Below are positions 46,711-64,000 of a stretch of DNA of 64,000 nucleotides, piece after piece (the stretch's first letter is position 1; each line of letters starts with the position of its first letter). The stretch covers positions 7,841,135-7,905,134 of the forward strand of contig NC_135255.1 of assembly GCF_964204865.1 (NCBI RefSeq), given 5' to 3'. A program made the translations under genes and the position numbers. This DNA is from Styela clava (taxonomy: Eukaryota; Chordata; Ascidiacea; Stolidobranchia; Styelidae). The notes beneath the pieces were generated by a model. The model was not told where the DNA came from. It searched no databases and saw nothing but the letters and a program-made list of their open reading frames with translations.

Positions 46711-46731
46711 GTCATATATATATATATATAT

Positions 46732-46763
<32 letters not shown>
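46711..46763. repeat. AT dinucleotide microsatellite
   Basis: Runs of (AT)n interrupted once by acac, about 300 bases after the ARRDC stop codon. Confidence 0.95.
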
Positions 46764-46764
<1 letters not shown>

Positions 46765-51178: not shown

Positions 51179-51377
51179 GTGAACAAAGTTGTTACTCTTA
51201 CTTTTTTTATTACAGGCTTTCAATACTTCAGCACCATGAACCTCGATTTTATAAACCCTTGGTTTGATACAATTTCAGCTCTACCAATTCATTACAGAAA
51301 TTTCGGCAACACTACCGGTATTGGCTCTAGTTCACCTTCCAACGTAGTCCGGTTTAGTTATCACACACTTTGATCGT

Positions 51378-54300
51378 TTAAAGCGACGTCCTCAGAGATT
51401 GGGTTCTGACGTTCATCAAGTCCCTTGGGATAGGTCCTTCGCATAGCAACACGTTTGGATTAGGTGTTTTTATTATCAGGAACCCTGCCTTTCTAAGCGC
51501 AGCTGGCTTAACTGAAATTTCCACCCGTTTTCCTCGAACCTTGTATTTCGGTTTTCTGCTGAGATGAATATACTTTCGTCCTCGCGATTCCAACCCAATT
51601 TGCCATATAGAGTTTAGGTTTTCCACGCGCGTCACATGATATAGTGTTTCATTACCAGTATATTCATTGTATTGTGGCGTCGTTCCCCGCGTATGCCCAT
51701 AAGCTGCTGCTAGCCCATCCTTAGTTACAATAGCCCTTTCGCTATCTCGCATTACCTCTTGGATGTACATTACGTCGCAGTTAATGCCACTCTGTTCCTG
51801 TAGTACTTCCTGTAAATGCTGCCAAGAATGAAAACCTTCCTTTGCGACAGGACAATCTGTATGTCTGCAATGAGCTATCAAGACGCGTTGAATTTTTTCT
51901 TTTTTCTCTCGTGCAGCGAGCTTCTCCCCTTCTTTTTTCGTTGTCGTTTCAGGTATGGCCCACGCGCCAGTTTCTTTGGGCGTGAATGCCATCTCAAGCC
52001 AGAACGAACGAGACAAACCATCTGACGTAAATACCTCCCTTGTAGTTCGATGTATTACTTTAGTTATTTGGAACCCAGATATATGATTCAGCCAGCGTTG
52101 AATTAGCATGCGCGGGCTGGGGTTTTTTGCATTGTCTTTCATTCGCTTTAGCAAGCCAAAAACTCCCATGTTATCTGTTATAACTGTAAAGGGCATAGTG
52201 TGTAAGATCGATAGCCACTTATCCAAAGTTTGTTTTAGGGCCTTAAGTTCCTTCGTGCAGGGATCGTATGCCCTTGCCGCAGGCGTATTCCACTTCTGGC
52301 TGTAGTATGCTATTGGGTAGACTGAGGTAAAGGGCGGTTCTTCTTCTTTGTTTGTTTGAAATATAATTGCTCCAAACCCGTTTTCGGAGGCATCTGTTTC
52401 CACAAACAACGGGAGATCAGGATTTATGTGATACAAGACCTCCGCGCTATTCAGCTGCTCTCTAGCGACTTTATAATCTTCCAATAGTTCTTTAGTCCAT
52501 AACACTGGTGTAACCCTTCCGCGCGTAGCCGGAACGTTTCCCGTTAGAGCATCAAATTTTGCCAGTTTTAAGCTAAGTTTCGGGATATGATCTGCAATGT
52601 AGCGTAGGGCTCCAATCCAACCCCTTAATTCGTATACATTACGCGGCGGAGTCAATTCTTTCAAGGCCCTCAATCGTTCTGGTTGTACTTCTATTTTCTT
52701 ACCGCTCAATGTCGCACCAAGTAGATTAATTCGTCTTTTTCCGATAAAACATTTGTTTATGCTGAGCGTTAATTTCATTTTAGCTAATTGTTCAAAGGTT
52801 ATTTGAAGCAGTATTAGATGATCCTCCACAGTTTTGGTACTCAGAAATATATCGTCAATGTATGCTTCTATAGGTGAGGCCTTTACCTCGTCAAGCCGCT
52901 TGCAATTATTCATGTGTTTTCGATATAGAGCTGTAATAGGTTCTACGACGCAAGCTTGCATATTAGCTGAGAAGAGGGCCACGGCGGTCTTAAGTCCCAT
53001 CGGGAGTTTTCGCCAGCGTAGATGTTGACCTTTGACCGCTATGCCCAAAAAGGTCCTACTGTCTTCAACTACATCACAATGAAAGTATGCCTTTTTTAAA
53101 TCAAGGAGTGACAAGACCTCTCTTCCTTGCGCCATTTGCTTAATATCGGGGATTAACGCTGGGGCGATTTCAATAGATTTGATGGCAGCATTCAATGGTT
53201 GGAGATTTTGCACCACCCTCCATGATTGTTGCCAGCCAGTTTCTTGCTTTTGTCGTTCGTTCATTTTTTGCGGTACCACAAATATTGCCAATTTCCATTC
53301 CGCAAATCCAGTCTCTATTACTCCGAGATCTAGAAAGTTTTTTACGGCTTCTTCGAGAGCTTCTGATTGTTCTTTTCCTCTCAGGTTGTATGGTCCTGAG
53401 ACAAAGGGTTTTACAGTGGGATCTTTTAGTTCGATGTGACACGGATATTTCAGTTCTTGTTTAGACGATAAATGACCCCTCAGATCTTCCAACTCTTTGG
53501 CATAAGGTTGATACACTTGCCTCCATTCTTTTTCTGTTATTACTGTGTTTTCTGGTGAATTGAGTTCAGGCGGGACGTAAGTTTCCCCAGCAAGAGCTAT
53601 CGCTTCGTCGCTGAGCTTCTGCAGTTCGCTTTTTACTTTGTGCGGTGTTCCCTTTTTCAACACGTATTCGTTCACTGGTCCTTTCATGACAACTCTTTCG
53701 TTTGATATAGGTATGACGGATGATTTTCTTGCACTTCGTGCTTCACCCCGGGGGTCCGAATCTGGCTTTCTACTAGCTCGTTCGGATTTTTGACCCCTGA
53801 AACTTCGTTCTCGGTCATTAGTGTTTCGCAAGCCAATACCACTGTTAGGCCTTGCGCGCTGTTTCCCCGCCTCGGTACATTCCAGAGGATCGTCACCCTC
53901 TGGTTCACCGGCTGTCATAACTAAATTGCTCATACATGACGATGGATTGTTCATCTCCGTGACCATCGTCGTTAAGGCTTGCACCGGTCCCAACCATTTG
54001 AACCCAATTATGTTTAATGGTATGCCCTGTCCCGTTGCAAATGGAACTTTGAGCTCTCCCATGTTTATAATCATCAAGGAATTAATTTGGCAAGTTCCTC
54101 CTATTCCCCTTACATTCACTGTAAAAGGTTGACGGTTTTTCCAACTATTGGGATAAGATTTTTCGGCGGTTTGCCTTGTCATTAAGTTAGGCAAACTACC
54201 CGTGTCTGCAAGGAACATAGTTCCAGTTTTGATATCCCTTAAATACATCAATTCACCTCCAAATACATCGGTAAGGCTTATACCGTCAGTTTTTTCCGGT

Positions 54301-54401
54301 TTTCCCAAAAAGGTGAATAGAGGTAAGGTTTCATTGTTTATGATTTTTTCATATTTACAAGGTACCACTTTATCCGGAAGTTGCCGCACCGGATCAGACA
54401 A
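51378..54401 (-). CDS. pol: Pol: aspartic protease, reverse transcriptase, RNase H, Tpt1/KptA-like 2'-phosphotransferase
   Basis: The frame has 1,007 codons counted from a TTG at 54401, but it opens upstream and is most likely reached by -1 frameshifting from gag. Domains: retroviral-type protease near residues 45-140 with FLADTGS (Asp66); a charged Ser/Arg-rich linker at 160-265; RT at about 330-570 with LLDLKKAYF (Asp434) and YIDD (514-517); RNase H at about 650-800 with acidic residues Asp670, Glu718, Asp743 and Asp794. Residues about 835-1000 carry a Tpt1/KptA-like domain: CRH near 845-847, YGHT at 901-904, LYHVTRVENLNSIWQIGLE from 920, GRKYIHLS at 941-948, and VLLCEGPIP near the end. No integrase core or zinc finger is visible. 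RT sequence suggests the Ty3/retrovirus side of LTR elements. Protease, RT and RNase H residues are all present, so the enzyme looks active by sequence. Confidence 0.93.
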   Translation of the reverse strand: MSDPVRQLPDKVVPCKYEKIINNETLPLFTFLGKPEKTDGISLTDVFGGELMYLRDIKTGTMFLADTGSLPNLMTRQTAEKSYPNSWKNRQPFTVNVRGIGGTCQINSLMIINMGELKVPFATGQGIPLNIIGFKWLGPVQALTTMVTEMNNPSSCMSNLVMTAGEPEGDDPLECTEAGKQRARPNSGIGLRNTNDRERSFRGQKSERASRKPDSDPRGEARSARKSSVIPISNERVVMKGPVNEYVLKKGTPHKVKSELQKLSDEAIALAGETYVPPELNSPENTVITEKEWRQVYQPYAKELEDLRGHLSSKQELKYPCHIELKDPTVKPFVSGPYNLRGKEQSEALEEAVKNFLDLGVIETGFAEWKLAIFVVPQKMNERQKQETGWQQSWRVVQNLQPLNAAIKSIEIAPALIPDIKQMAQGREVLSLLDLKKAYFHCDVVEDSRTFLGIAVKGQHLRWRKLPMGLKTAVALFSANMQACVVEPITALYRKHMNNCKRLDEVKASPIEAYIDDIFLSTKTVEDHLILLQITFEQLAKMKLTLSINKCFIGKRRINLLGATLSGKKIEVQPERLRALKELTPPRNVYELRGWIGALRYIADHIPKLSLKLAKFDALTGNVPATRGRVTPVLWTKELLEDYKVAREQLNSAEVLYHINPDLPLFVETDASENGFGAIIFQTNKEEEPPFTSVYPIAYYSQKWNTPAARAYDPCTKELKALKQTLDKWLSILHTMPFTVITDNMGVFGLLKRMKDNAKNPSPRMLIQRWLNHISGFQITKVIHRTTREVFTSDGLSRSFWLEMAFTPKETGAWAIPETTTKKEGEKLAAREKKEKIQRVLIAHCRHTDCPVAKEGFHSWQHLQEVLQEQSGINCDVMYIQEVMRDSERAIVTKDGLAAAYGHTRGTTPQYNEYTGNETLYHVTRVENLNSIWQIGLESRGRKYIHLSRKPKYKVRGKRVEISVKPAALRKAGFLIIKTPNPNVLLCEGPIPRDLMNVRTQSLRTSL

Positions 54402-54419
54402 CTTCCGTACTAGTTTAAA
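54375..54419 (-). promoter_or_regulatory. -1 ribosomal frameshift signal between gag and pol
   Basis: On the minus strand the heptamer TTTAAAC (54419-54413) lies in the gag frame as T TTA AAC, directly before the gag TAG stop (54412-54410). After a 5-base spacer comes a perfect 9-bp stem, CGGAAGTTG (54407-54399) with CAACTTCCG (54383-54375), around a 15-base loop. The pol frame is exactly -1 relative to gag. Heptamer, spacer and stem together match the established retroviral frameshift design. Loop bases ATCCGG could also pair with CCGGAT at the stem base, so a pseudoknot or an alternative fold is possible. Confidence 0.9.
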
Positions 54420-57295
54420 GATGAGTTTAGTCCTTGTTGCATATCATGTTCAGTCCAACCATGTTGGACATAATAGCAAGGAGCTGTTTTAGTTTGGGTA
54501 AGTGGCAAGTTCCAATGCGTCCTATTCTGCCAATGAGTTTTATCTCGGCTTTTGGGTCTAAATCCAAAGTATAGCTCACACAGATTTGCCCTTTTTTCTA
54601 ATGTTGGGGACCCTTGAGATATGAGGTATTTGTTTAGGTCATCAATGTCGCGCAATGGAAGTGCTAAAGGATTATTGCCGCCTAGGAAATCGGACCATTT
54701 TTCCTTGCATTCTCGTCGCAAATTGTCTGGCAGTTTTCTTGTTCGCGGCTTGATTACCCAACTTCCCTGTTCATCCTTTCCCAGGACCTTATCCGTGACC
54801 CACAATATAGCTTTAACCAGACACGAGCTTGAAATGTGACCAGGACTTTTACACAAGTAGCAGACTGATAAAGATTGACCATTTTCAGGTGAAATGTACA
54901 GTCCTAATGGTTCAAAGATGTTGGACTGACTCAAGAAATTGTATGGCTCACCTTGTGTTTCCGCTATTCTTGCGGCTTCGCCTATGCTACTTGGAGTTGT
55001 TTCTTGTTGGGTTAACTGCTGGCGTTGAGGAGAAATTTGTTGCTCTGATGTCTCTTCGCGAGGTGGCGTGTTTCGTGGATTCGCGTAACGCTCTTTTCGC
55101 TTCCACGGCTTGGCTTTTTCTTTCGCTTTTCTTGGTAGAGTGGCTCTCTCACGTAGATTAGGTGCTTCATTGCTCCTTGTCGTTTGGCCACCCGAAACAC
55201 CTGGAGGGTTCATCATTCTATTACTTAATAATTGATTACTTTGGACATCAGTGGGGAACTCTTTAGTAGACCCAACGTATGCGTGCAAAAGCCTTTTGTT
55301 ACCTTCTTCATAGGGTGTTTGGCGCAATGTTTTTTCCATCGCCGGCTGGATATTATATACGTTTACCGGAGGTGGTGTATATGTTTGTTGTAGTGCTGGC
55401 ATCGAAGTTACTGGATACGAAGAGGTTCTGGAATACCGATCCATCTTATTTGTTACTCTTACGGTTTGGTCATCTAATAGTTCAGAGTTCCAGAATTTTT
55501 GTAGATCTGTCGCCACATTTCTCCAGGTGAAATGTTCTCGTCCTTGTAGCAAAATTCGCAATGTTTGGGGAAGTTTTGCTCTGAGATTTCTGAACAGGCG
55601 CATGCCATCTGGATCGGCCATAATTTGTTCATCGATATCAATATCCATTTCTCGTAATACCCCATGTATAGCGAGCATGGGCCTTTCTTTCCAACTATAA
55701 TTTAAGGCAAAGTCATTTATCACCTTCTCGTTGTTAGCGATGCCTTGTGGATGAGTTACCGCCAACAATTCCATGACTGTTTTCCAATTAGGGCGAGGTA
55801 CGTCAAACAAATCGGCTATTTGTTCTGCATCCTCTCGGCGGTTCGCTTCAATTAGCTTCTTTTGTATCGCGTTGGCCAGTATTCTGTCCCTTATTGTGTC
55901 GCCTGGACCATGTTCGATAAATGTCATCGCGTCTTCTAGCCACTTCAATAGATTTAATCTCCCAGGATTCTTCATGATAGCCATCATTTCGTCCACGTTC
56001 ATGGGTTTGGAAGAAGTAGCCAAGGGTTGGTACGGTGGTTGTGTAATTTTGACGAAATTCGGCTGCGATGGTCTTTGAGCATACCGTTCTTCTTCTTCGG
56101 ACGACGATGATGATGAAGGAGTCTCGGTATTACTTGATAAGTCCAAATTCGGGTCCGCTTGCAAGGATCGCTGAAACTCTGGGTCTTGTTGCAAGAACTG
56201 TCCATTGGCAAGGGATATCACGTCAAATTTTGGGCCTCCTTGCAGGGAGAATTCTTGAGAAACTGGTCTTGTTTCCGACGATGGCGAACGAGACAATTCA
56301 GTTCTCGTCAGCACTCCATTTTTTAGCTGCGCCCTTCTTTGCCTTCCTCGAGTTAAGCGTACGGTGGGATATTTTTTTGGACTTGGTCCCAACCTTATGG
56401 AGCTTAGTTCTTTAGCTTTTGTATAATCGGGAGCCGGTATTACCATTTGAGGCGTTGTTATTTCTGCCTCTTGATAGGGACCTTTCCCGTCACCTCTGGC
56501 TGTTCTTGAATTCAATCCCAACCGTCTTCTATTTATTATTGCTGACCTTTCGTCTGCTGGAGTGGAGAAAACAGGAGGCGGTATAAGCTGCGCCCTTTGT
56601 GAGTACAGCATTTTAACTCCGTAGGGATCCTCGCCTGGTGTAGTTAATAATCGTCCTTGACGTATCCTTTTATCGCTGACCACATCTACACCTTCGATTC
56701 CAATCGGGTAAGCGGCCATTTCATGTTGCAACCTGGGGTATATAGTTTCTATTTCTTGATGGTCTAGTCCCTTTTTCACGACCAACCTTGGGCCATTTGG
56801 GGTATCTGGGTGAATTGGCCAGGAATTCATCGTGGGTGTTCTGGAAACAAGTGTGGCGGGGTATGATGGTGGTTCTGAAGACGGTGGTGCCGACGGTTCA
56901 ACAGCCACTGAATATGACTTCGTGACGTCTGCTTCACTGGTAGACATTTTGTATAACTTTCCAGCATTGTATTCGTTTTTGAGTACACCTTGAAGTTCTT
57001 CCATCGTGATTTTTGCGCTGGCTTTCTTTGCTGCTTTTTCAATGGCTGCTAAATCGTTCTGGGCCATTTTTACATCTTTCGTTGCCTGTTTAAGTTCTTT
57101 TTTGGCATGGGGAAGGTCTTTTTGTATTTGAGTAAATAGTTTTTGTTTATCAAGTATATCTTGCTTAAGCTTTTTTTCAGTGGCGCTAACCTCTTTATGT
57201 CTTTCTTGGGTATGCTTTATTAATTTCATTTTGTTATTAAGTTTAGTTTGTTCACGGGACGCCTCCCCTTTTTTTCGACTAAACCAATTGGGCAT
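54410..57295 (-). CDS. gag: Gag polyprotein
   Basis: 961 codons from ATG (57295) to TAG. The N-terminus is MPNWFSRKKG, basic and without Gly2, so no myristoylation signal. Residues about 15-100 form a Lys/Glu-rich coiled coil. At 134-137 and 142-145 lie PSAP and PPSY, the two classical late-domain motifs that recruit TSG101/ESCRT-I and Nedd4-type ligases for budding. The middle (about 430-600) is the likely capsid region (MNVDEMMAIMKNPG onward). Residues 812-825 form a CCHC zinc knuckle, CYLCKSPGHISSSC, with C-x2-C-x4-H-x4-C spacing, the nucleocapsid mark. The product is large for a Gag. The stop is preceded by the slippery heptamer that gives access to pol. Confidence 0.92.
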   Translation of the reverse strand: MPNWFSRKKGEASREQTKLNNKMKLIKHTQERHKEVSATEKKLKQDILDKQKLFTQIQKDLPHAKKELKQATKDVKMAQNDLAAIEKAAKKASAKITMEELQGVLKNEYNAGKLYKMSTSEADVTKSYSVAVEPSAPPSSEPPSYPATLVSRTPTMNSWPIHPDTPNGPRLVVKKGLDHQEIETIYPRLQHEMAAYPIGIEGVDVVSDKRIRQGRLLTTPGEDPYGVKMLYSQRAQLIPPPVFSTPADERSAIINRRRLGLNSRTARGDGKGPYQEAEITTPQMVIPAPDYTKAKELSSIRLGPSPKKYPTVRLTRGRQRRAQLKNGVLTRTELSRSPSSETRPVSQEFSLQGGPKFDVISLANGQFLQQDPEFQRSLQADPNLDLSSNTETPSSSSSSEEEERYAQRPSQPNFVKITQPPYQPLATSSKPMNVDEMMAIMKNPGRLNLLKWLEDAMTFIEHGPGDTIRDRILANAIQKKLIEANRREDAEQIADLFDVPRPNWKTVMELLAVTHPQGIANNEKVINDFALNYSWKERPMLAIHGVLREMDIDIDEQIMADPDGMRLFRNLRAKLPQTLRILLQGREHFTWRNVATDLQKFWNSELLDDQTVRVTNKMDRYSRTSSYPVTSMPALQQTYTPPPVNVYNIQPAMEKTLRQTPYEEGNKRLLHAYVGSTKEFPTDVQSNQLLSNRMMNPPGVSGGQTTRSNEAPNLRERATLPRKAKEKAKPWKRKERYANPRNTPPREETSEQQISPQRQQLTQQETTPSSIGEAARIAETQGEPYNFLSQSNIFEPLGLYISPENGQSLSVCYLCKSPGHISSSCLVKAILWVTDKVLGKDEQGSWVIKPRTRKLPDNLRRECKEKWSDFLGGNNPLALPLRDIDDLNKYLISQGSPTLEKRANLCELYFGFRPKSRDKTHWQNRTHWNLPLTQTKTAPCYYVQHGWTEHDMQQGLNSSLN

Positions 57296-57670
57296 TGTTA
57301 GTCCTTAATTACTTTAAATATTTAACGTTATATTATTGTTATTGTATACATGCAGTGCCAAATCTTCTTGGCGTTACTCTTCTCGGACTGGTTCTCTGGA
57401 CTGGTATTCCGCTTTTTCCGTTGTTATTGAGTGAAGTGGCTGGTTAACTATTCGTTATTAATATAAAAATTACTTGCAATTTTACGATTCCCTTTTTATC
57501 TTGCCGCTTGTTGTAAGGGTCGTTTGTTGCCTCGTTCTCTTTCGATTGGAGTCTACCTCTCTGCTTTTTCTTTTTTCGTTTTGGTTGTACGCAATTCTTT
57601 TGCCAGTCCCGACAGGATTTTGTTTTTGCTTATTTGGCTCGAAACGTTCCCTTCCTTGTTGTCTTCTTCG

Positions 57671-57695
57671 ACTTGGGTCTCAGAACGACCCAAGT
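57671..57695. repeat. 9-bp perfect hairpin in the proviral leader
   Basis: acttgggtc, tcagaac, gacccaagt form a perfect 9-bp stem with a 7-base loop. Its place in the gag leader makes it a candidate packaging or dimerisation structure; this is inference. Confidence 0.75.
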
Positions 57696-57977
57696 TTTCC
57701 TAAGCCTAGTACGTAGCCTAAATCTTAATACAACCAAATACTCCAATATTAGTACAGTTATATAAATAAATAAAATACAATATAACCATACTAACACACA
57801 TTTAACATTTTAAATACGATAAAATGATTTACTAATTTGTTTTTGCATCATAAAAATTGTTATAAACACAATACAAATTTCTTAAAATAGCATAACACAC
57901 TTAAGATAAAATTCGGAATATGATATAAGATATCTTAACATCATTATACTGTTTTTCAAAACTATAACGTTGGGTCA

Positions 57978-58428
57978 AAAGCAAAGCGCCTATCAGGAAT
58001 TAACCATAGACCGTCAGGCTCCCCGTAACCAATGTTAGTTTCCCACTGAACACCCTTATTACGGTGCCTTGATCCCAGATCATTAAATAATATATAAACA
58101 AAACAATATAACGTGTCAGACACCATATATCCTATTTTTTTTTTAAAGTGATGCACACATTTAATACGGTAACCTATTTCAAATTTATACTGAAAAACAC
58201 TTGATCATATTTGCGAAGTATTAAAAAAAATACAACATGCACATTTGTAGATAGTTTCAGTATAGTTCCTTAATATTCTCAACACGGGGCATGGGGTGTC
58301 TTGTTGCATAAAAAACAACACTCGAGTTCAGTGCAGGGCTTCTATCAGGAATTTCCTTTAGACCGTCAAGGCCCCTCCCAGCATTGGCTTCCGCTATGCC
58401 CACCTAACACGGTGCGTTACTACCCGCA
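57978..58428 (-). repeat. diverged ~90-bp direct duplication in the leader
   Basis: Block 57978-58068 and block 58329-58428 share an ordered set of motifs: ctatcaggaatt, tagaccgtca, a cattgg/aatgtt stretch, and acggtgc. The copies are about 350 bases apart in the same orientation. Both leader copies are conserved more in motif order than in intervening bases, which hints at RNA structure. Confidence 0.6.
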
Positions 58429-58463
58429 AACAAACATTCCCTCCCCCGGTTAAAAAATAGAAA

Positions 58464-58482
58464 GACCGAGACGAAGCCCCCA
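58464..58482 (-). promoter_or_regulatory. primer binding site, tRNA-Pro-like
   Basis: The minus strand reads TGGGGGCTTCGTCTCGGTC directly after the LTR end. The first eight bases and the following CGTC match the tRNA-Pro primer site of gammaretrovirus type, with a one-base insertion and further differences. The tRNA identity is tentative. Confidence 0.5.
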
Positions 58483-58485
58483 GTA

Positions 58486-58830
58486 TGTTATAGAGATTTT
58501 TGGGGTTTAATTAAACACACCCCACAGGGGGTGGGGTACATTCAATTTGCCCTTGATTACTCTTGGGTTCATTATCGTTGTCTAGGACAAAATAATTCCA
58601 AAAAAATATATGAGATAAACATCATACATTATTAGCAACATACAAAGACATCAATGTTCAAAAAATTCTCAACTAGTATAGTCAAATCTTATTTTAAAGT
58701 TTCGATGTCTTAACAATTTCAAAAAAACATAAGTTACACGTATCCGCCATTTTGTTTTTTCGTTGTGGCCGCCATTTTGGTTTTTCCTTTGTGGCCGCCA
58801 TTTTGTTTTAGATGCGGCGATCAATAGTAT
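58486..58830 (-). mobile_element. LTR, 3' (U5-side) edge and adjacent part
   Basis: The minus-strand LTR ends ...CTATAACA at 58486, three bases before the primer site. Just inside lies a small hairpin, ACCCCAC/GTGGGGT (58519-58537). Three CCGCCATTTTG repeats lie about 260-320 bases inside. The other LTR edge could not be placed because no second copy is in the window; the true LTR probably extends further right, up to at most 60860. Confidence 0.5.
58744..58805 (-). promoter_or_regulatory. three tandem YY1-like sites in the LTR
   Basis: CCGCCATTTTG occurs at 58744-58754, 58769-58779 and 58795-58805, spaced 25 and 26 bases apart within a ~25-bp tandem unit. On the transcribed strand this reads CAAAATGGCGG, which matches the core of the YY1 zinc-finger motif. 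Likely enhancer or silencer sites for proviral transcription. Confidence 0.6.
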
Positions 58831-60860
58831 TGGTTTGTATCAAGAATTTTTAGCTGTTTCTTTTATTATTTTTTATGGGTTTTAATGTACAAATTGAAAC
58901 AGCACCATTAAATAGTCACATTAAGTATGTGGTTATAACTTCCACTATATAATTAATAAAAATAACTAAGGTTTACGACTCATCATATTATAAGTACATG
59001 AGAAGGCTTCAAGTCTTTCCTTAGGAATTTCTCTGTTACGAAGGGCACCGGCTTATCGTATGAGTAAGTCAAACGTCCGGTTAGTTCATTAATTAAAGAT
59101 TCAAACTTACAATTTACATTCATATAATAATAAACAAGTTACATAAGTATATAGGGTAGTATAAAATCAAATGTTGAGTATACCAACACAATAAAAATAT
59201 AAACAATAATGGTAATAAACTACAATTACATTTACATTATTGTCAATGGTGAGCATAAGTCGTTACAATTATTCCTTTAAGCTTATTGTGCAATTCCACA
59301 ATACATTCGTGTGGTCTATTTATTTATTATTTTATTTTTACTGACCAACCAAACTTGGGCATCCCATATTTGAATGACGTAATACCATAAATGCGTATTA
59401 CTTCCGTGGTCACTATAATACACTATGTCCATACATGATCTATGTTATTTCCTATATTAAGTTCCGCCTGGCAAATATGCTCTAGCATAACTTTTAATAT
59501 AAGTCCCACGATCATCCTTGATCTCATGATTACATGATATTACATTAACTATTAATCAATGAAAATATACCAATAATAATAAAACACCATACGTCAGAGC
59601 CAGTTACAAAGTTAAATGGAATAAGAAAAAATAACAAACTTCAAATATACTTGGTTATACATGAGTCATTTGCAAAGAATTTTTTAATAACTGGGAGTCA
59701 TGGGAATACAAGTTACGGAAGCCATTAAACCAACGCAGCTGAATCTATTTATAAATTTCCTATCTGGGAACTTCAGCAATGCATTAGTGATTATCCATGG
59801 GAAAACATGTTTTCTTGGGCTCTTAAGGGATTATCCAGCTTTTTACGAGATAATAACTTTGCAGCGTTGATGGAAAATATTTAATTCTCTGCCAATTCTC
59901 ACGACGTGCAAAATCTATTTTCCCATAAATTTAATAACCATTTGATAAGGCAATATCAGGTTTGCAAAATATAGCATAGCACCATGTACTTTACGATCAG
60001 CCAACAATTTCCTGAAACTCAATGTGGGAAAATTTTGACAATACGTCAACTGTTTGTGATTTCCTATGTCCCATAACAATATTAATTTTTATTATGTAAG
60101 GCAATTGGAGGATTGTGCATTCCCAGACTCTGCCTAAAATTCTCATATAATTTCGAAAATTAAAACATATCTGAATTAGGTAACTTTCCTTATTTCACAT
60201 AAATTGTTTAATAAATTCCTACAATTCTTTATAGGTCTCAACAGTTCTACAGTTCTAGTAAAAAATTATACAATTAACTTCAAACATAATCTACGTTTTC
60301 AAAGTTTACCAAAGTCATTCTGAGTTTGTATCTATATAATCATTCAATAACCGTTCTTTTAATCGAAAGATTCTGATTAATGAATTAAAGTTCGGATGAA
60401 AACTTAATAAATTTGTAACATCACCAGTGAGTCCATTTAGTTGAAGGTTGTTCGTATGATATTCTTTTAATGCTTGAGTCTGGATAGAAGTTGCAGTTGA
60501 GTTCTCAACATCTTTCTGATATGTAGGCTGAGTTGTATAAGTTCCATTTGTTTCGGTTGCTTGTTGAATATTTCCAAGTCTTTTGCTGGTTGTACACAGT
60601 AGTTGATATTCGTTTGCCATGGATGCCCGATGTTGACTGACTTTCTCAGGCCAATATTGGTCACCTTATAACACATCTGATGGGTGTATTTTAAACTTCA
60701 ATTCTCGAGGGATCAAGCATCGCTACCTTATATGGTCGCGTTGCGCAATTTTATAAAGGTCATGACGTATTCGATTTTCATCAAGTCCAGGAAGTTTTGG
60801 GCGTCACTGGGGGTTTGCAATTTATTCCGAGAGTCTTTGACAATTTACCTAGATTTATAT
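58831..60860. other. sequence between env and the placed LTR edge
   Basis: AT-rich. It must hold the remainder of the LTR and the 3' untranslated part of the upstream provirus, but no polypurine tract or LTR start was clear. It contains the small ORF at 60315-60620. Confidence 0.4.
60315..60620 (-). CDS. possible small accessory ORF downstream of env
   Basis: 101 codons from ATG, 240 bases after the env stop on the same strand. The residues are mixed and polar (MANEYQLLCTTSKRLGNIQQ start), with no membrane segment or known motif. Its position between env and the LTR is where complex retroviruses place accessory genes, but a chance ORF is equally possible. Confidence 0.3.
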   Translation of the reverse strand: MANEYQLLCTTSKRLGNIQQATETNGTYTTQPTYQKDVENSTATSIQTQALKEYHTNNLQLNGLTGDVTNLLSFHPNFNSLIRIFRLKERLLNDYIDTNSE

Positions 60861-63272
60861 TTATAATATTGCTATAGCAGCCGTTTCGGCACCGTCTTTT
60901 ATCATTTTCTTTATTTCGTGGTGTTTTTGCCTGTTTTCAATATTTCGCCAACCTAATGGGCTTCCTGTCTGAAAGTAAGGCGGCAGCTGTGCTTTTACAG
61001 GGGCGCAATTTGGGTGATTCTGGATACAGCAGCACATTGTTATAAGAATCACAACCACGATTGCAATCGGTATTAATGCTTTTAGGAAAGGCGAGAATAC
61101 CCCACCAAAAATTCCACCGAAGAAATTTCCTACCGCCTCCCCCCCGGTTTTGAAAACATTCCCGACTTCTCCGAGTCCTTTATTTACTAGGTTCATAGCT
61201 TCATCCACTATGTTAGTGAAATTTAAATCTAATGTCATATTAATGTGTTCGACCGATATATTTTCGAAGTCCCATTCTGACGTGTTTACTAATATTAGGG
61301 AATGGTTTAAGCCACTCACCCACAATTCATTGGCTTCGTTTAGTTCTCTGTCTGCGCCTTGCATACCACGTCTCATTTCCTCTGCTTGCCTTACATTGTT
61401 CTGAATCGTTTGGTTTGCCTCCTCCTCTACTGCTGTTAGAAGTCGGGCGTATTCTTTCAAATGCAGGATACCATCTTTTACCCGTATTAAATACGCCTTG
61501 GTTTTGTCAAATAATGGTTTTGCCGTTGAATTTTTCAAAACGTGTAACACTAATTGATTCACCTCTAACTCAGCTACAGACATGGCTTCGATTGTTTGGA
61601 ATTCATGCAGAAACGTATCCAACTCCCGTAGTAATAATCGCTGATTCTGGTCAATTTCTCCCTGTAAGAAATTCCATTCCTGTCTTCTTAATTCGCGCTC
61701 TTTAACCATTTGAAAGATGACCTCACTTAGCCGTTGATTCTGAATAAAAGTCGATCGGGACAATTCATTTAGTCTTGACGCAACTTGTCTTAAGGCCTCT
61801 TCATTCTGGGCAAACCTCGTGTTCACCTGTCGAGTCATTTCGTCAATTCGATCGTTAATTTCGCCAATAAGGGTTCTTGTGTTTGCATAATTTATTCCTG
61901 CAAATATTAGAGCTATTGCCTCAAATATAAAGCGTTTATTTCTCCGGGCAGGAATTCCTATTCCGGGCACACTAAGCGGATCTTGCGCGTTCCGACTTGG
62001 CCATTTGCCTCCTTTTAGCATAAGAGGTGGGGCCGGGAACTGAGTTCGGTTGCGAGCAGGGTCATACTTAGTTTCGTCCCAGAACCGCATTTTTACTTCC
62101 ATACTCCCGACAGGGTATTGACATTGTTCATTTCTTTCAATTCGTCGCTTACATTCACTGTCCCAGTGCAACATGGACGGATAGGTGTCATATAACACCA
62201 TAGGTCCATGTTTTTGTATCACTTCCCCATCGTGAGTCCAATTAACAATATGAGTTGGCGCGATCCACCTAATTTTCTCATTCCATTCCGGGAAATCAAA
62301 ATCACTTGGCCATATGTTAGTGGATACCGGCCAGAAGGTCTCATTCAGAACCCCTACGTATTTTGTAGTGTTTCGAATTGACACGCTGTTATGTTCATCA
62401 TCGACTTCTTGTATTAAAAAATCGCCTTCTAGGGGTTCAAATATTAAATCGTGCCCGGTAAACTGATACCGAATTCGGTTCATGTAAGGGGACAGTCCTT
62501 GTTTGTCTACGTAGTTAGTTAAAAATGTCTGAAGTATACCTTTGTCAAAATCCATTACTTCGACGCCACCTTCTGTCCCACGATATTGAATTGCTTTTGT
62601 GACTTGAGTTGTTACATCGACTGTTGCGTAAAATTGTAGCAATCGGATCACCATAGCTTTATACGCCGTGAAGGTCGTAAGCATTAGATTGGTCATCGTT
62701 TGGACGTGTTTATTGCGCCTTTTGCTTGGTTGCGGCGCCCATTGCCATGCAAATCGGAAATGTTGGCCTATAGGTCGCCTATACGTTTGATTTTTATAAA
62801 GAAGTGAGCGTTGTAAATCAGGCTTTATCCAGGCAATTCGCCGTTTGCACAGGCACTCCCGTTCTAGCATGATAGGACTTTCCCAATATTTTCCCTGGGG
62901 ATAATTACGTTGTTGATAAGTTTTCTCTTCCGCAACCACATACCCGAAATTTGAGGAATAATAGAGAGCCGGAGTTTTATATACTTTGTCGCCGTCACTT
63001 ACGTTCCAGCAGTTTTTTAAATCAATTTGTTCCCATGGAGTAGATGGATCTGTCAGTTCCCAATGCGTGGCGTTTAATTGACTCGCCTTGATCAAGGTAC
63101 CCTCGTTCAACGAGGCCACGCCCAAATTTAACTCTCCCATAACACAGAAGACTTTTTCCCTCGACAACAATACCATAGCACATAAACCCAATGCGACGCC
63201 AACCCAATTATTGTTAGTACGAGAATTAAAAACGTGCACCATTCTGGATTCATCGGAGGATGGGCCGGCCAT
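60861..63272 (-). CDS. env: Env-like class I fusion glycoprotein
   Basis: 803 codons from ATG. A hydrophobic segment at about residues 23-37 can act as signal peptide or anchor. The surface part has many sequons and paired cysteines. A furin-type site, ARRNKR (442-447), is followed by a hydrophobic, fusion-peptide-like FIFEAIALIFAGI and then a long heptad-like region (about 465-560). Near the C-terminus a Gly/Phe-rich stretch leads to a membrane anchor at about 729-748 ending in Cys-rich MCCCI, and a 53-residue tail with PPYF. The cleavage-fusion peptide-heptad-anchor order is that of class I viral fusion proteins; the cleavage context resembles F-type proteins of insect errantiviruses and baculoviruses. 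No retroviral CX6CC or immunosuppressive-type motif was seen. Family placement is inference. Confidence 0.8.
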   Translation of the reverse strand: MAGPSSDESRMVHVFNSRTNNNWVGVALGLCAMVLLSREKVFCVMGELNLGVASLNEGTLIKASQLNATHWELTDPSTPWEQIDLKNCWNVSDGDKVYKTPALYYSSNFGYVVAEEKTYQQRNYPQGKYWESPIMLERECLCKRRIAWIKPDLQRSLLYKNQTYRRPIGQHFRFAWQWAPQPSKRRNKHVQTMTNLMLTTFTAYKAMVIRLLQFYATVDVTTQVTKAIQYRGTEGGVEVMDFDKGILQTFLTNYVDKQGLSPYMNRIRYQFTGHDLIFEPLEGDFLIQEVDDEHNSVSIRNTTKYVGVLNETFWPVSTNIWPSDFDFPEWNEKIRWIAPTHIVNWTHDGEVIQKHGPMVLYDTYPSMLHWDSECKRRIERNEQCQYPVGSMEVKMRFWDETKYDPARNRTQFPAPPLMLKGGKWPSRNAQDPLSVPGIGIPARRNKRFIFEAIALIFAGINYANTRTLIGEINDRIDEMTRQVNTRFAQNEEALRQVASRLNELSRSTFIQNQRLSEVIFQMVKERELRRQEWNFLQGEIDQNQRLLLRELDTFLHEFQTIEAMSVAELEVNQLVLHVLKNSTAKPLFDKTKAYLIRVKDGILHLKEYARLLTAVEEEANQTIQNNVRQAEEMRRGMQGADRELNEANELWVSGLNHSLILVNTSEWDFENISVEHINMTLDLNFTNIVDEAMNLVNKGLGEVGNVFKTGGEAVGNFFGGIFGGVFSPFLKALIPIAIVVVILITMCCCIQNHPNCAPVKAQLPPYFQTGSPLGWRNIENRQKHHEIKKMIKDGAETAAIAIL

Positions 63273-63400
63273 ATCATTTAGTTTTTTTTTTTTAGTTTGT
63301 AACTTTTATTTAACAATAGTCTGTAAAACAAAATTCAAAAGTTCATGGTTATGTACAACACGGCATGCCTGTTTTATTATTACTTCATTTACAGTTCCAA

Positions 63401-64000
63401 TTAGTTCGCTGAGAAATTGCCATTTCGAGACTGTAGGTAGATCTTTTCAGCCTCCATGCAATCTACTTTCAATAATTTTTGGATAGCAAATATAACACTC
63501 TCAGGTAATAACACATCCGTTTCGAGTTCATAGTTTATTAGTGACCATATGGGGCTGCTGCAGGATTGCATTGATTTAGGTCGAAGATAACTCAACGAAT
63601 AAGGGTTGAACTTACGAGATGTATGCCGTCGGGTTCTCATTGGGCGAGGTGCCTCACTGCGCGAGAGTCGGGTCCCTCCCCATCGAGTGAACATTTCAGT
63701 ACATTGTTTCAGGTATCTCAGCACGTTTTCTTGTTTCTGTTCGTCTTTGAAGAACATACGAACACAGGCGGCCTCCCACACTCGCTGCATGGCTTTATTG
63801 CTAAATCCTCTGTCGAATTGAGTTAGTCTATCTGACTCCCTCTTTCCACACCAGATGTCATGTAGGTGGCTTTCGCAATTTCCTGTGATGACGTAATCAT
63901 AGACTCTTTCTCTCAATTGTTTCTGACGTTCTTCCCGACTGGTCAATAATGGTAGCGATATTTCTTCTCTTGTCACAGAGTTGGGACGATTAGACGGTCC
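63401..64000 (-). CDS. unidentified ORF upstream of env, partial
   Basis: The frame is open from the window edge (64000) to a stop at 63401, at least 199 residues, 128 bases before the env start. It is charged and helix-rich at first (SREERQKQLRERVYDYV), has WCGKRESDRLTQFDRGFSN, then a basic stretch (PRPMRTRRHTSRKFNP), then an acidic-hydrophobic end. No integrase, chromodomain or zinc-binding motif was recognised. Its place just before env is where the end of pol or an accessory gene would lie. The N-terminal part beyond the window may reveal what it is. Confidence 0.65.
   Translation of the reverse strand, partial: GPSNRPNSVTREEISLPLLTSREERQKQLRERVYDYVITGNCESHLHDIWCGKRESDRLTQFDRGFSNKAMQRVWEAACVRMFFKDEQKQENVLRYLKQCTEMFTRWGGTRLSRSEAPRPMRTRRHTSRKFNPYSLSYLRPKSMQSCSSPIWSLINYELETDVLLPESVIFAIQKLLKVDCMEAEKIYLQSRNGNFSAN

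What the first reader, a model, noticed from the sequence alone, without database searches (positions are those of the whole stretch)
51404..51899. Tpt1/KptA-type RNA 2'-phosphotransferase domain fused to the end of a retroelement Pol
Seen: after RNase H, pol residues ~835-1000 follow the Tpt1/KptA motif order, with CRH and a GFHSWQHLQEVL-like turn, then YGHT, then LYHVT...SIWQIGLE, GRKYIHLS, and a final VLLCEGPIP strand. Known: Tpt1/KptA enzymes use NAD+ to remove 2'-phosphates left at RNA ligation junctions, and some can ADP-ribosylate RNA ends. Inference: the element may repair or protect RNA, such as a cleaved primer tRNA or its genome, or blunt a host RNA-cleavage defence. I do not know whether this fusion has been reported.
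Basis: partly seen in the sequence, partly recalled or inferred. Interest (0 to 1): 0.95.

Follow-up and report, generated by a model that had tools for sequence, protein, structure and literature searches.

The report
Retrovirus-like transposon with RNA-repair enzyme
The odd tail on this viral-type polymerase is related to Tpt1/KptA enzymes, which strip 2'-phosphates from RNA, and the gene sits in a young 14.7-kb mobile element that carries retrovirus-like gag, pol and env genes but inserts like a DNA transposon, with its own bacterial-type transposase in place of a retroviral integrase.

Summary
Pol residues ~835-1007 (window 51378-51899, minus) are a Tpt1/KptA domain: Pfam PTS_2-RNA E=8e-8, a model whose best PDB matches are KptA/Tpt1, and the catalytic Arg-His-Arg-Arg tetrad in 12 of 12 divergent Pols. 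No LTRs and no integrase were found. Seven near-identical copies in the own genome define a 14.7-kb element running past the window's right edge, with inverted terminal repeats, 8-bp target duplications (6 of 7 copies) and, at the far end, an IS1595/Merlin-type DDE transposase. Between the ends lie orf2, env, gag and a -1 frameshift into protease-RT-RNase H-Tpt1. Two divergent families in the same genome repeat the plan. Env shows purifying selection among the copies; for gag-pol only low variability is shown. Best reading: an integrase-less, virus-like reverse-transcribing element that inserts by a Merlin-type transposase and carries an RNA-processing enzyme in Gag-Pol. Activity, particles and an RNA intermediate are untested. 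The listed rows of nine paper searches showed no such element.

The parts
51315..51322 (.). left copy of the 8-bp target-site duplication CCGGTATT (right copy at L021:2028-2035, outside the window)
51323..51347 (+). left terminal inverted repeat; 18 of 25 bases match the right end
   Evidence: 0 of 100000 shuffles reach 18
51378..51899 (-). Tpt1/KptA RNA 2'-phosphotransferase domain, Pol residues ~835-1007; tetrad R846, H847, R889, R942
52074..52499 (-). RNase H domain (D670, E718, D743 identical in the six Pols aligned)
52707..53231 (-). reverse transcriptase domain (YIDD; D434, D516, D517 identical in the six Pols aligned)
54084..54221 (-). aspartic protease region with DTG motif (weak Pfam match, E=0.24, below cut-off)
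51378..54443 (-). pol reading frame, stop to stop (1021 codons); no integrase domain found
54375..54419 (-). -1 frameshift signal: TTTAAAC directly before the gag stop, 5-nt spacer, perfect 9-bp stem CGGAAGTTG/CAACTTCCG
54410..57295 (-). gag-like ORF (961 aa); N-terminal coiled coil by eye, CCHC zinc knuckle sub-threshold (E=0.005)
57296..60860 (-). mostly non-coding part of the element between env and gag, more variable between copies than the ORFs; holds a 101-aa ORF of unknown role at 60315-60620
60861..63272 (-). env-like ORF (803 aa): N-terminal hydrophobic stretch, single RNKR cleavage-type site (residues 444-447), C-terminal transmembrane segment, 14 N-glycosylation sequons
63282..63310 (-). 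AATAAA followed by a run of 12 A between orf2 and env; run length differs between copies
63401..64000 (-). 3' part of orf2 (452 aa in all; continues outside the window in L021:1-759), with PWWP3A/B C-terminal domain, E=1.7e-12; largely deleted in one of the other copies

Best explanation
This is a young, virus-like mobile element of 14,705 bp. Its left end is at window 51323 and its right end 2,027 bases beyond the window. It integrates as DNA: an IS1595/Merlin-type DDE transposase acts on terminal inverted repeats and leaves 8-bp target duplications. It also encodes a retroviral-type set: Gag, Gag-Pol made by -1 frameshifting (protease, reverse transcriptase, RNase H) and an Env-like glycoprotein. 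No integrase was found in Pol; its end is a Tpt1/KptA domain instead. Most likely the element (or its virus) copies an RNA genome into DNA inside Gag particles and the transposase, not an integrase, inserts that DNA. The Tpt1 domain, delivered into the particle as part of Gag-Pol, would use NAD+ on phosphates of the packaged RNA: removing 2'-phosphates left at repaired or cleaved sites of genome or primer RNA, or ADP-ribosylating 5'-phosphate ends. Shown here: domain identity and fold, conserved tetrad, element ends, target duplications, transposase, frameshift signal, recent copies, selection on env and low variability of gag-pol. Inferred: RNA intermediate, particles, enzymatic activity and substrate.
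Against: No transcript, particle or enzymatic data. No terminal redundancy was found that would let a linear RNA regenerate both ends, so the RNA-to-DNA step needs a circular or longer template that was not shown. Among the copies gag and pol together have 10 non-synonymous to 6 synonymous sites, no different from neutral (p=0.25); without env the whole set is 13 to 10 (p=0.05). The Tpt1 part (3 to 2; 0.91%, p=0.09) and orf2 (3 to 4; 1.2%, p=0.20) are not significantly less variable than non-coding DNA. One copy (C1) lacks about 750 bases of orf2. The Tpt1 part is as divergent between Pols as the protease and more so than RT and RNase H (mean identity 28-36%, 29%, 44% and 47%). The conserved Lys and the Gly of HGT are lost in 12 of 12. 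One of the seven copies has no matching target duplication. The C9 family shows no canonical slippery site at its gag-pol junction. In the C2 family env follows pol, and neither ends nor a transposase were found in what was fetched. Inverted-repeat scans of the C19 and C9 flanks also give chance hits of up to 16/25.
Confidence: 0.58

Rival explanations
1. DNA transposon with retroviral cargo: the element moves only as DNA, cut and paste by its Merlin-type transposase. Gag, Pol-Tpt1 and Env serve other ends (for example packaging or cell-to-cell transfer of the DNA or of transcripts), and reverse transcription is not part of copying.
For: Inverted repeats, 8-bp duplications and an IS1595-type transposase explain the insertions seen. 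No LTRs or terminal redundancy. Replacement changes in gag-pol among copies are not fewer than neutral.
Against: RT and RNase H active-site residues are identical in the divergent Pols aligned, gag and pol (before Tpt1) are less variable than non-coding DNA and have no indels in the aligned stretches, and the frameshift signal is intact. That is unexpected if RT activity were idle.
Confidence: 0.25
2. The Tpt1-like domain is no longer an enzyme but an RNA-binding or assembly module; the winged-helix RNA lobe holds the genome or the primer.
For: Divergence, loss of the conserved Lys and of the Gly of HGT, and no measurable selection on it among the copies. Foldseek and VIA also align the N-lobe to La/LARP RNA-binding modules.
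Against: All four tetrad residues and the NAD+-contacting His and Thr are kept in 12 of 12 divergent Pols. The tetrad is essential in yeast and bacterial Tpt1 and in human TRPT1 (PMC6333775 and PMC6582358, passages).
Confidence: 0.13
3. Two unrelated elements nested in one another: a Merlin transposon interrupted by an LTR-less retroelement, or host genes beside a retroelement.
For: On the window alone it looks so: orf2 matches a host-type PWWP3 domain and has a poly(A) signal.
Against: All seven copies share both outer ends, and three divergent families have transposase, env and pol-Tpt1 between their own ends.
Confidence: 0.03

Closest known systems
Tpt1/KptA/TRPT1 RNA 2'-phosphotransferases (PF01885)
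   Same: Fold, two-lobe order, Arg-His-Arg-Arg tetrad, H and T of the HGT motif
   Different: The solved relatives are free-standing proteins of about 180-220 aa; here fused behind RNase H in a retroviral-type polyprotein. Conserved Lys and the Gly of HGT are lost, and H-x-RH-x-x-C is constant in the elements
KptA domains in polyproteins of RNA viruses (Beihai picorna-like virus, Botrylloides leachii nidovirus)
   Same: A KptA domain embedded in a viral polyprotein, suggested to process viral RNA ends (PMC9503650, passages)
   Different: Those are positive-strand RNA viruses. In the 12 passages shown, KptA is never tied to a reverse transcriptase; the words retroelement, reverse transcript- and retrotranspos- have 0 occurrences in that paper's main text
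Merlin / IS1595 (IS1016) DNA transposons
   Same: PF12762 transposase, inverted repeats, 8-bp target duplications
   Different: Merlins carry a transposase gene only (recalled); here about 12-16 kb with gag, pol and env
Caulimoviridae / Metaviridae (Ty3) reverse transcriptases
   Same: Protease-RT-RNase H order. Best PDB match of RT-RNase H is 8r0s 'Enzymatic polyprotein' in three of three searches (E=3e-21 for the window; recalled to be the cauliflower mosaic virus enzyme), ahead of Pr125Pol and Ty3 chains. Like caulimovirids (recalled), no integrase
   Different: A separate clade in the RT tree, which held no caulimovirid (98/92); Env-like gene, transposase and Tpt1
Kuafuorterviruses (PMC11673190, parts 1 and 2 of 3 of the text read)
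   Same: A recently recognised, overlooked animal lineage of reverse-transcribing elements
   Different: They have LTRs, integrase and I/V/LADD in RT; in this element none of these was found
Walleye dermal sarcoma virus 2H domain (PMC9503650, passage)
   Same: A retrovirus with an RNA-end-processing domain
   Different: A 2H phosphoesterase, not Tpt1, in an ordinary retrovirus

Membership tests
Tpt1/KptA | Significant profile match to PF01885 | tested here: met
   33.0 bits on the tail against a cut-off of 26; above cut-off in 8 of the 11 Pols scanned
Tpt1/KptA | Arg-His-Arg-Arg tetrad | tested here: met
   12 of 12 Pols, aligned to the host's own Tpt1
Tpt1/KptA | Winged-helix RNA lobe plus ADP-ribosyltransferase NAD+ lobe | tested here: met
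Tpt1/KptA | HGT motif | tested here: inconclusive
   H and T kept in 12 of 12, G in 0 of 12
Tpt1/KptA | NAD+-dependent removal of RNA 2'-phosphate | not testable with these tools
   needs protein
LTR retrotransposon / Retroviridae / Metaviridae | Long terminal repeats | tested here: not met
   No direct repeats between the flanking parts; ends are inverted repeats
LTR retrotransposon / Retroviridae / Metaviridae | Integrase in Pol | tested here: not met
   No integrase family in Pfam scans of the window Pol, P0001-P0005, C19, C9, P0059, P0060 and P0062; C19, C9, P0059 and P0062 were scanned as partial Pols
LTR retrotransposon / Retroviridae / Metaviridae | Aspartic protease-RT-RNase H homologous to Ty3-like enzymes | tested here: met
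   RVT_1 4e-16, RNase H 9e-20; protease by DTG motif only in the window copy, RVP E=7e-6 in P0060
Merlin / IS1595 transposon | IS1595-type DDE transposase | tested here: met
   PF12762 3.8e-16 (window family) and 1.2e-17 (C19). The C9 family's transposase was not scanned but is 49-51% identical to these. Aligned D, D and E in all three; that these are the catalytic ones is recalled
Merlin / IS1595 transposon | 8-bp target-site duplications | tested here: met
   6 of 7 copies, plus one insertion each of the C19 and C9 families
Merlin / IS1595 transposon | Terminal inverted repeats | tested here: met
   18/25, 21/25 and 18/25 in three families
Caulimoviridae | RT clade membership | tested here: inconclusive
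   Best solved relative is 8r0s, but no caulimovirid was in the tree
Kuafuorterviridae | LTRs, integrase and xADD RT motif | tested here: not met
   no LTRs, no integrase found, YIDD/YMDD (PMC11673190)

The most novel reading that the evidence does not exclude
A new class of reverse-transcribing virus-like element of animals. Retroviral integrase and LTRs are replaced by an IS1595/Merlin DDE transposase acting on inverted repeats, and the Gag-Pol polyprotein delivers a catalytically active NAD+-dependent Tpt1 enzyme into the particle to repair or cap the RNA that is copied. It would be a pararetrovirus-like replication cycle joined to bacterial-type DNA transposition.
Probability: 0.5. Interest if true: 0.96.

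Novelty: categorically new. Interest (0 to 1): 0.9.

Why it matters
It joins two mechanisms normally kept apart: RNA-based copying by Gag-Pol and DNA-based insertion by a transposase acting on inverted repeats, with an Env-like gene on top. That makes the question whether a reverse-transcribing element can swap its integrase for a transposase directly testable. It also places an enzyme of the Tpt1 class, whose role in animals is unclear, in a setting with a limited set of possible substrates (the contents of a Gag particle). Repeat finders that rely on LTRs would miss such elements or mistake their parts for host genes; here orf2 looked like a host gene until the copies were compared.

Tried and rejected
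Rejected: chance similarity (12 of 12 tetrad). Host Tpt1 captured recently or read-through into a host gene: the host's own Tpt1 (L001, E=1e-54) is far more canonical, and the fusion recurs in 11 other Pols. Ordinary LTR element: repeats searched three ways, none found. orf2 as a neighbouring host gene: I first read it so; the copies show it lies inside the element. Membership of the kuafuorterviruses: text read in part, does not fit. Tpt1 as a remover of 2'-phosphate roadblocks to reverse transcriptase: as I read PMC6456296 (passages), primer extension in tpt1-deleted yeast passes the 2'-phosphate junction, while the exonuclease Xrn1 is stopped by it; so this role is not supported and protection or repair of ends is preferred.

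Led nowhere: the tail alone as a protein query (405 candidates, 0 hits); viral contigs with Pol, the Pol alignment and the Env alignment (3, 17 and 83 pattern matches, 0 relatives); genome contigs with the Tpt1 alignment (no stretch conserved enough, no scan run); tRNAs and Rfam in the window (none). The stem after the slippery site folds, but the 91-nt piece is not unusual (z -1.3; 20 of 200 shuffles fold as well). Searches for the transposase, Pol and orf2 across the genome did not complete, so copy numbers of plain Merlin relatives, and Pol relatives without Tpt1, are unknown. A primer-binding site was not tested. The host taxon was not identified. Of the 69 proteins returned, P0061 and P0063 are fragments that end before the region and P0069 is a fragment of the N-terminal half; they were left out of the tetrad count. 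The remaining 58 show no PF01885 in the precomputed column but, apart from P0039, their sequences were not looked at for a weak tail. P0002 is cut off after the third Arg. The tree kept 59 of 72 candidate rows (rows with no phmmer match or a match of 300 aa or less dropped) and held 10 of the 12 Tpt1-bearing Pols, not P0062 or the C2 family; P0039, a long branch, joins beside the Tpt1 clade and may be misplaced. The expected share of non-synonymous changes weighted pol twice and is approximate; one search used 0.75. Polymorphism was counted only where a copy was fetched: 858 of about 2,886 bases of gag, 600 of about 1,359 of orf2 (49 in the C1 copy), about 1,989 of about 3,033 of pol (561 in three of the six compared copies), none of the transposase. 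The deletion in the C1 copy's orf2 breaks the alignment and is not among the nine indels.

Full report

Is the domain kept as an enzyme? A search with residues 300-1007 of Pol returned 58 proteins, five of them relatives at 38-46% identity that carry the domain behind RNase H and show no integrase in Pfam. A second search with a profile added P0059, P0060 and P0062. With three other families of the same genome and the window this makes 12 divergent Pols. [quoted passage not shown] the Gly and the Lys beside the second Arg are kept in none. That Lys is said not to be essential in the Runella and yeast enzymes. Between Pols the domain is about as divergent as the protease (mean pairwise identity 28-36% and 29%) and more so than RT and RNase H (44% and 47%).

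What carries it. The window shows no LTRs. The own genome (376.6 Mb, 379 contigs) answered two searches, with PF01885 and with Env. The Pfam family found 15 places: the host's own Tpt1 (E=1e-54), seven with the same 1021-codon frame (the window among them), and others. Stretches from six other copies align to the window at 99.4-99.8% from about 51321 to the window's end and at 99.2-99.9% for about 2,027 bases beyond it; one of them, on C1, lacks about 750 bases of orf2 across the window's edge. At both ends the homology stops sharply. The ends read GGCTCTAGTTCACC... and ...GTGAACATGCGCC, an imperfect 25-base inverted repeat (18 matches; 0 of 100,000 shuffles reach this), flanked by exact 8-bp duplications in 6 of 7 copies: CCGGTATT (window), CATGTGCT, GTATTATA, GGACTTCC, CCGTACGG, TACAAATC; the seventh, on C2, has TTAAAGTT/TAATAACG. 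About 220 bases inside the far end is a 317-aa ORF matching DDE_Tnp_IS1595 with E=3.8e-16. Merlin transposons are related to the IS1016 group of IS1595, and both make 8-bp duplications (PMC10045372, passage).

Gene order. In transcription sense: transposase; orf2 (452 aa, with a PWWP3A/B C-terminal domain); env-like ORF (803 aa); 3.6 kb of mostly non-coding DNA; gag-like ORF (961 aa); pol. Pol follows gag in the -1 frame. The heptamer TTTAAAC stands directly before the gag stop, followed after 5 nt by a perfect 9-bp stem; a 91-nt fold is not exceptional against shuffles (z -1.3). C19 has GGGAAAC in the gag frame ahead of its gag stop; C9 shows no canonical site at its junction. The Env-like proteins of three families share one R-x-K-R site, a C-terminal transmembrane stretch and 13-15 glycosylation sequons; no Pfam family supports the name (window Env scanned, best E=0.53), so 'env' rests on layout. 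'Gag' rests on position, frameshift and a sub-threshold zinc knuckle.

The plan is old. An Env search of the genome gave 19 matches: 7 at 100% identity, and divergent ones next to divergent Pols. The C19 element (10440547-10456298) has duplication GATCCAAA, inverted repeats 21/25, a PF12762 transposase of 305 aa about 210 bases behind its end, another 275-aa ORF, env and pol-Tpt1. The C9 element (5432731-5444742) has AATATTTT, 18/25, a 331-aa transposase, env and pol-Tpt1. In the same scan the next-best hits were 16/25 (C19) and 13/25 (C9), and a reversed partner gave up to 15/25 and 13/25. Transposases are 45-51% identical, Envs 38-41%, Pols 51-66% from RT to end. A fourth family on C2 has env behind pol-Tpt1; its ends and any transposase were not found in the 7 kb fetched beside it. 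In an RT-RNase H tree of 59 rows, 10 of the 12 Tpt1-bearing Pols were present; with the fragment P0061 they form a clade (98/92) apart from the Ty3-type rows, many of which carry integrase domains, with the long branch P0039 beside it. By score the closest solved RT is 8r0s 'Enzymatic polyprotein' (recalled: cauliflower mosaic virus), ahead of Pr125Pol and Ty3 chains; a Ty3-type control prefers Ty3.

Is it alive? Among the window copy and six others, distinct polymorphic sites number 32 in 5,859 covered coding bases and 76 in 3,748 non-coding (Fisher p=5e-11); coding changes are 15 non-synonymous to 17 synonymous (p=7e-4, approximate), and the 9 indel events in aligned stretches are all non-coding. 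Split by gene the picture is uneven. Env is clearly constrained (0.37%; 2 to 7, p=0.001). Gag (0.70%) and pol before Tpt1 (0.35%) vary less than non-coding DNA (2.0%), but gag-pol changes are 10 to 6, as expected without constraint on replacement. The Tpt1 part (0.91%; 3 to 2) and orf2 (1.2%; 3 to 4) are not significantly different from non-coding DNA, and orf2 is largely deleted in one copy. So recent spread of intact copies is shown, selection on Env is shown, and selection on Pol-Tpt1 rests on conservation between families.

How it probably works. Shown: insertion as DNA with 8-bp duplications; a transposase of the matching type; conserved active-site residues in RT, RNase H and Tpt1. Inferred: Gag-Pol-Tpt1 enters particles; RT copies packaged RNA; the transposase inserts the DNA. 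How RT restores both ends is open; joined ends in a DNA circle, read through into a terminally redundant RNA as in pararetroviruses, would solve it (speculation). For Tpt1 two chemistries are known: 2'-phosphate removal, and ADP-ribosylation of 5'-phosphate ends of RNA or DNA. KptA domains also sit in polyproteins of a picorna-like virus and a tunicate nidovirus, where processing of viral RNA ends was proposed (PMC9503650, passages). I think repair or capping of RNA in the particle is the likeliest role (about one in two); a direct roadblock-removal role for RT is not favoured by the yeast data.

Novelty. Searches (Tpt1/KptA with retroelements; new or integrase-less animal lineages; Merlin/IS1595 with retroviral genes) of the open-licence library listed no such element. 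I saw only the listed rows (20 of 26, 20 of 1,094, 20 of 1,140, 20 of 25, 1 of 1, 15 of 156, 15 of 142, 12 of 93 and 1 of 1) and parts of six papers: passages of PMC9503650, PMC6333775, PMC6582358, PMC6456296 and PMC10045372, and parts 1 and 2 of 3 of PMC11673190. Repbase, subscription journals and preprints outside the library were not searched, so priority is not certain. The kuafuorterviruses have LTRs, integrase and xADD and are a different lineage.

Noticed in passing
window 63282-63400: orf2, with a host-type PWWP3A/B C-terminal domain, ends with AATAAA and a run of 10-13 A (length differs between copies) immediately before the env start. It looks like the 3' end of a host mRNA captured through reverse transcription. 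The C9 family has no ORF there and C19 a different one.
   Followed up: partly
P0004 (ENA protein, 361-kb contig): This Pol-Tpt1 runs on into an Exo_endo_phos domain (E=5e-7) cut short at the end of the protein; possibly a further captured nuclease.
   Followed up: no
L045 / L043 (G000 C2:5187-5191 kb): A fourth, more divergent family with an intact 1077-codon env frame lying directly behind pol-Tpt1, the retroviral gene order, unlike the other three families.
   Followed up: partly
L016 / L026 (G000 C1 copy): This copy lacks about 750 bases (window 63450 to about 64197) inside orf2 while its env frame is intact; orf2 may be dispensable.
   Followed up: partly
L011/L024 (G000 C2 copy near 23.37 Mb): The only one of seven near-identical copies without a matching 8-bp duplication.
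   Followed up: no
window 57296-60860: This non-coding part is about four times as polymorphic among copies as the ORFs taken together and holds seven of the nine indel events (the other two are at the poly(A) run); a packaging or regulatory role was not examined.
   Followed up: partly
window 57981-58375: Two 43-nt repeats (74% alike, 352 nt apart) in the element's non-coding part.
   Followed up: no
Pol residues 844-850 (about window 51852-51872) and the 11 related Pols: H-x-R-H-x-x-C stands at the start of the Tpt1 motif; the extra His and Cys are constant in the elements' Pols and absent from the host Tpt1.
   Followed up: no
window 46714-46764 and 18549-18738/48288-48474: A 50-base inverted self-match (92%), and a 190-base inverted repeat pair (89%), both outside the element.
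   Followed up: no
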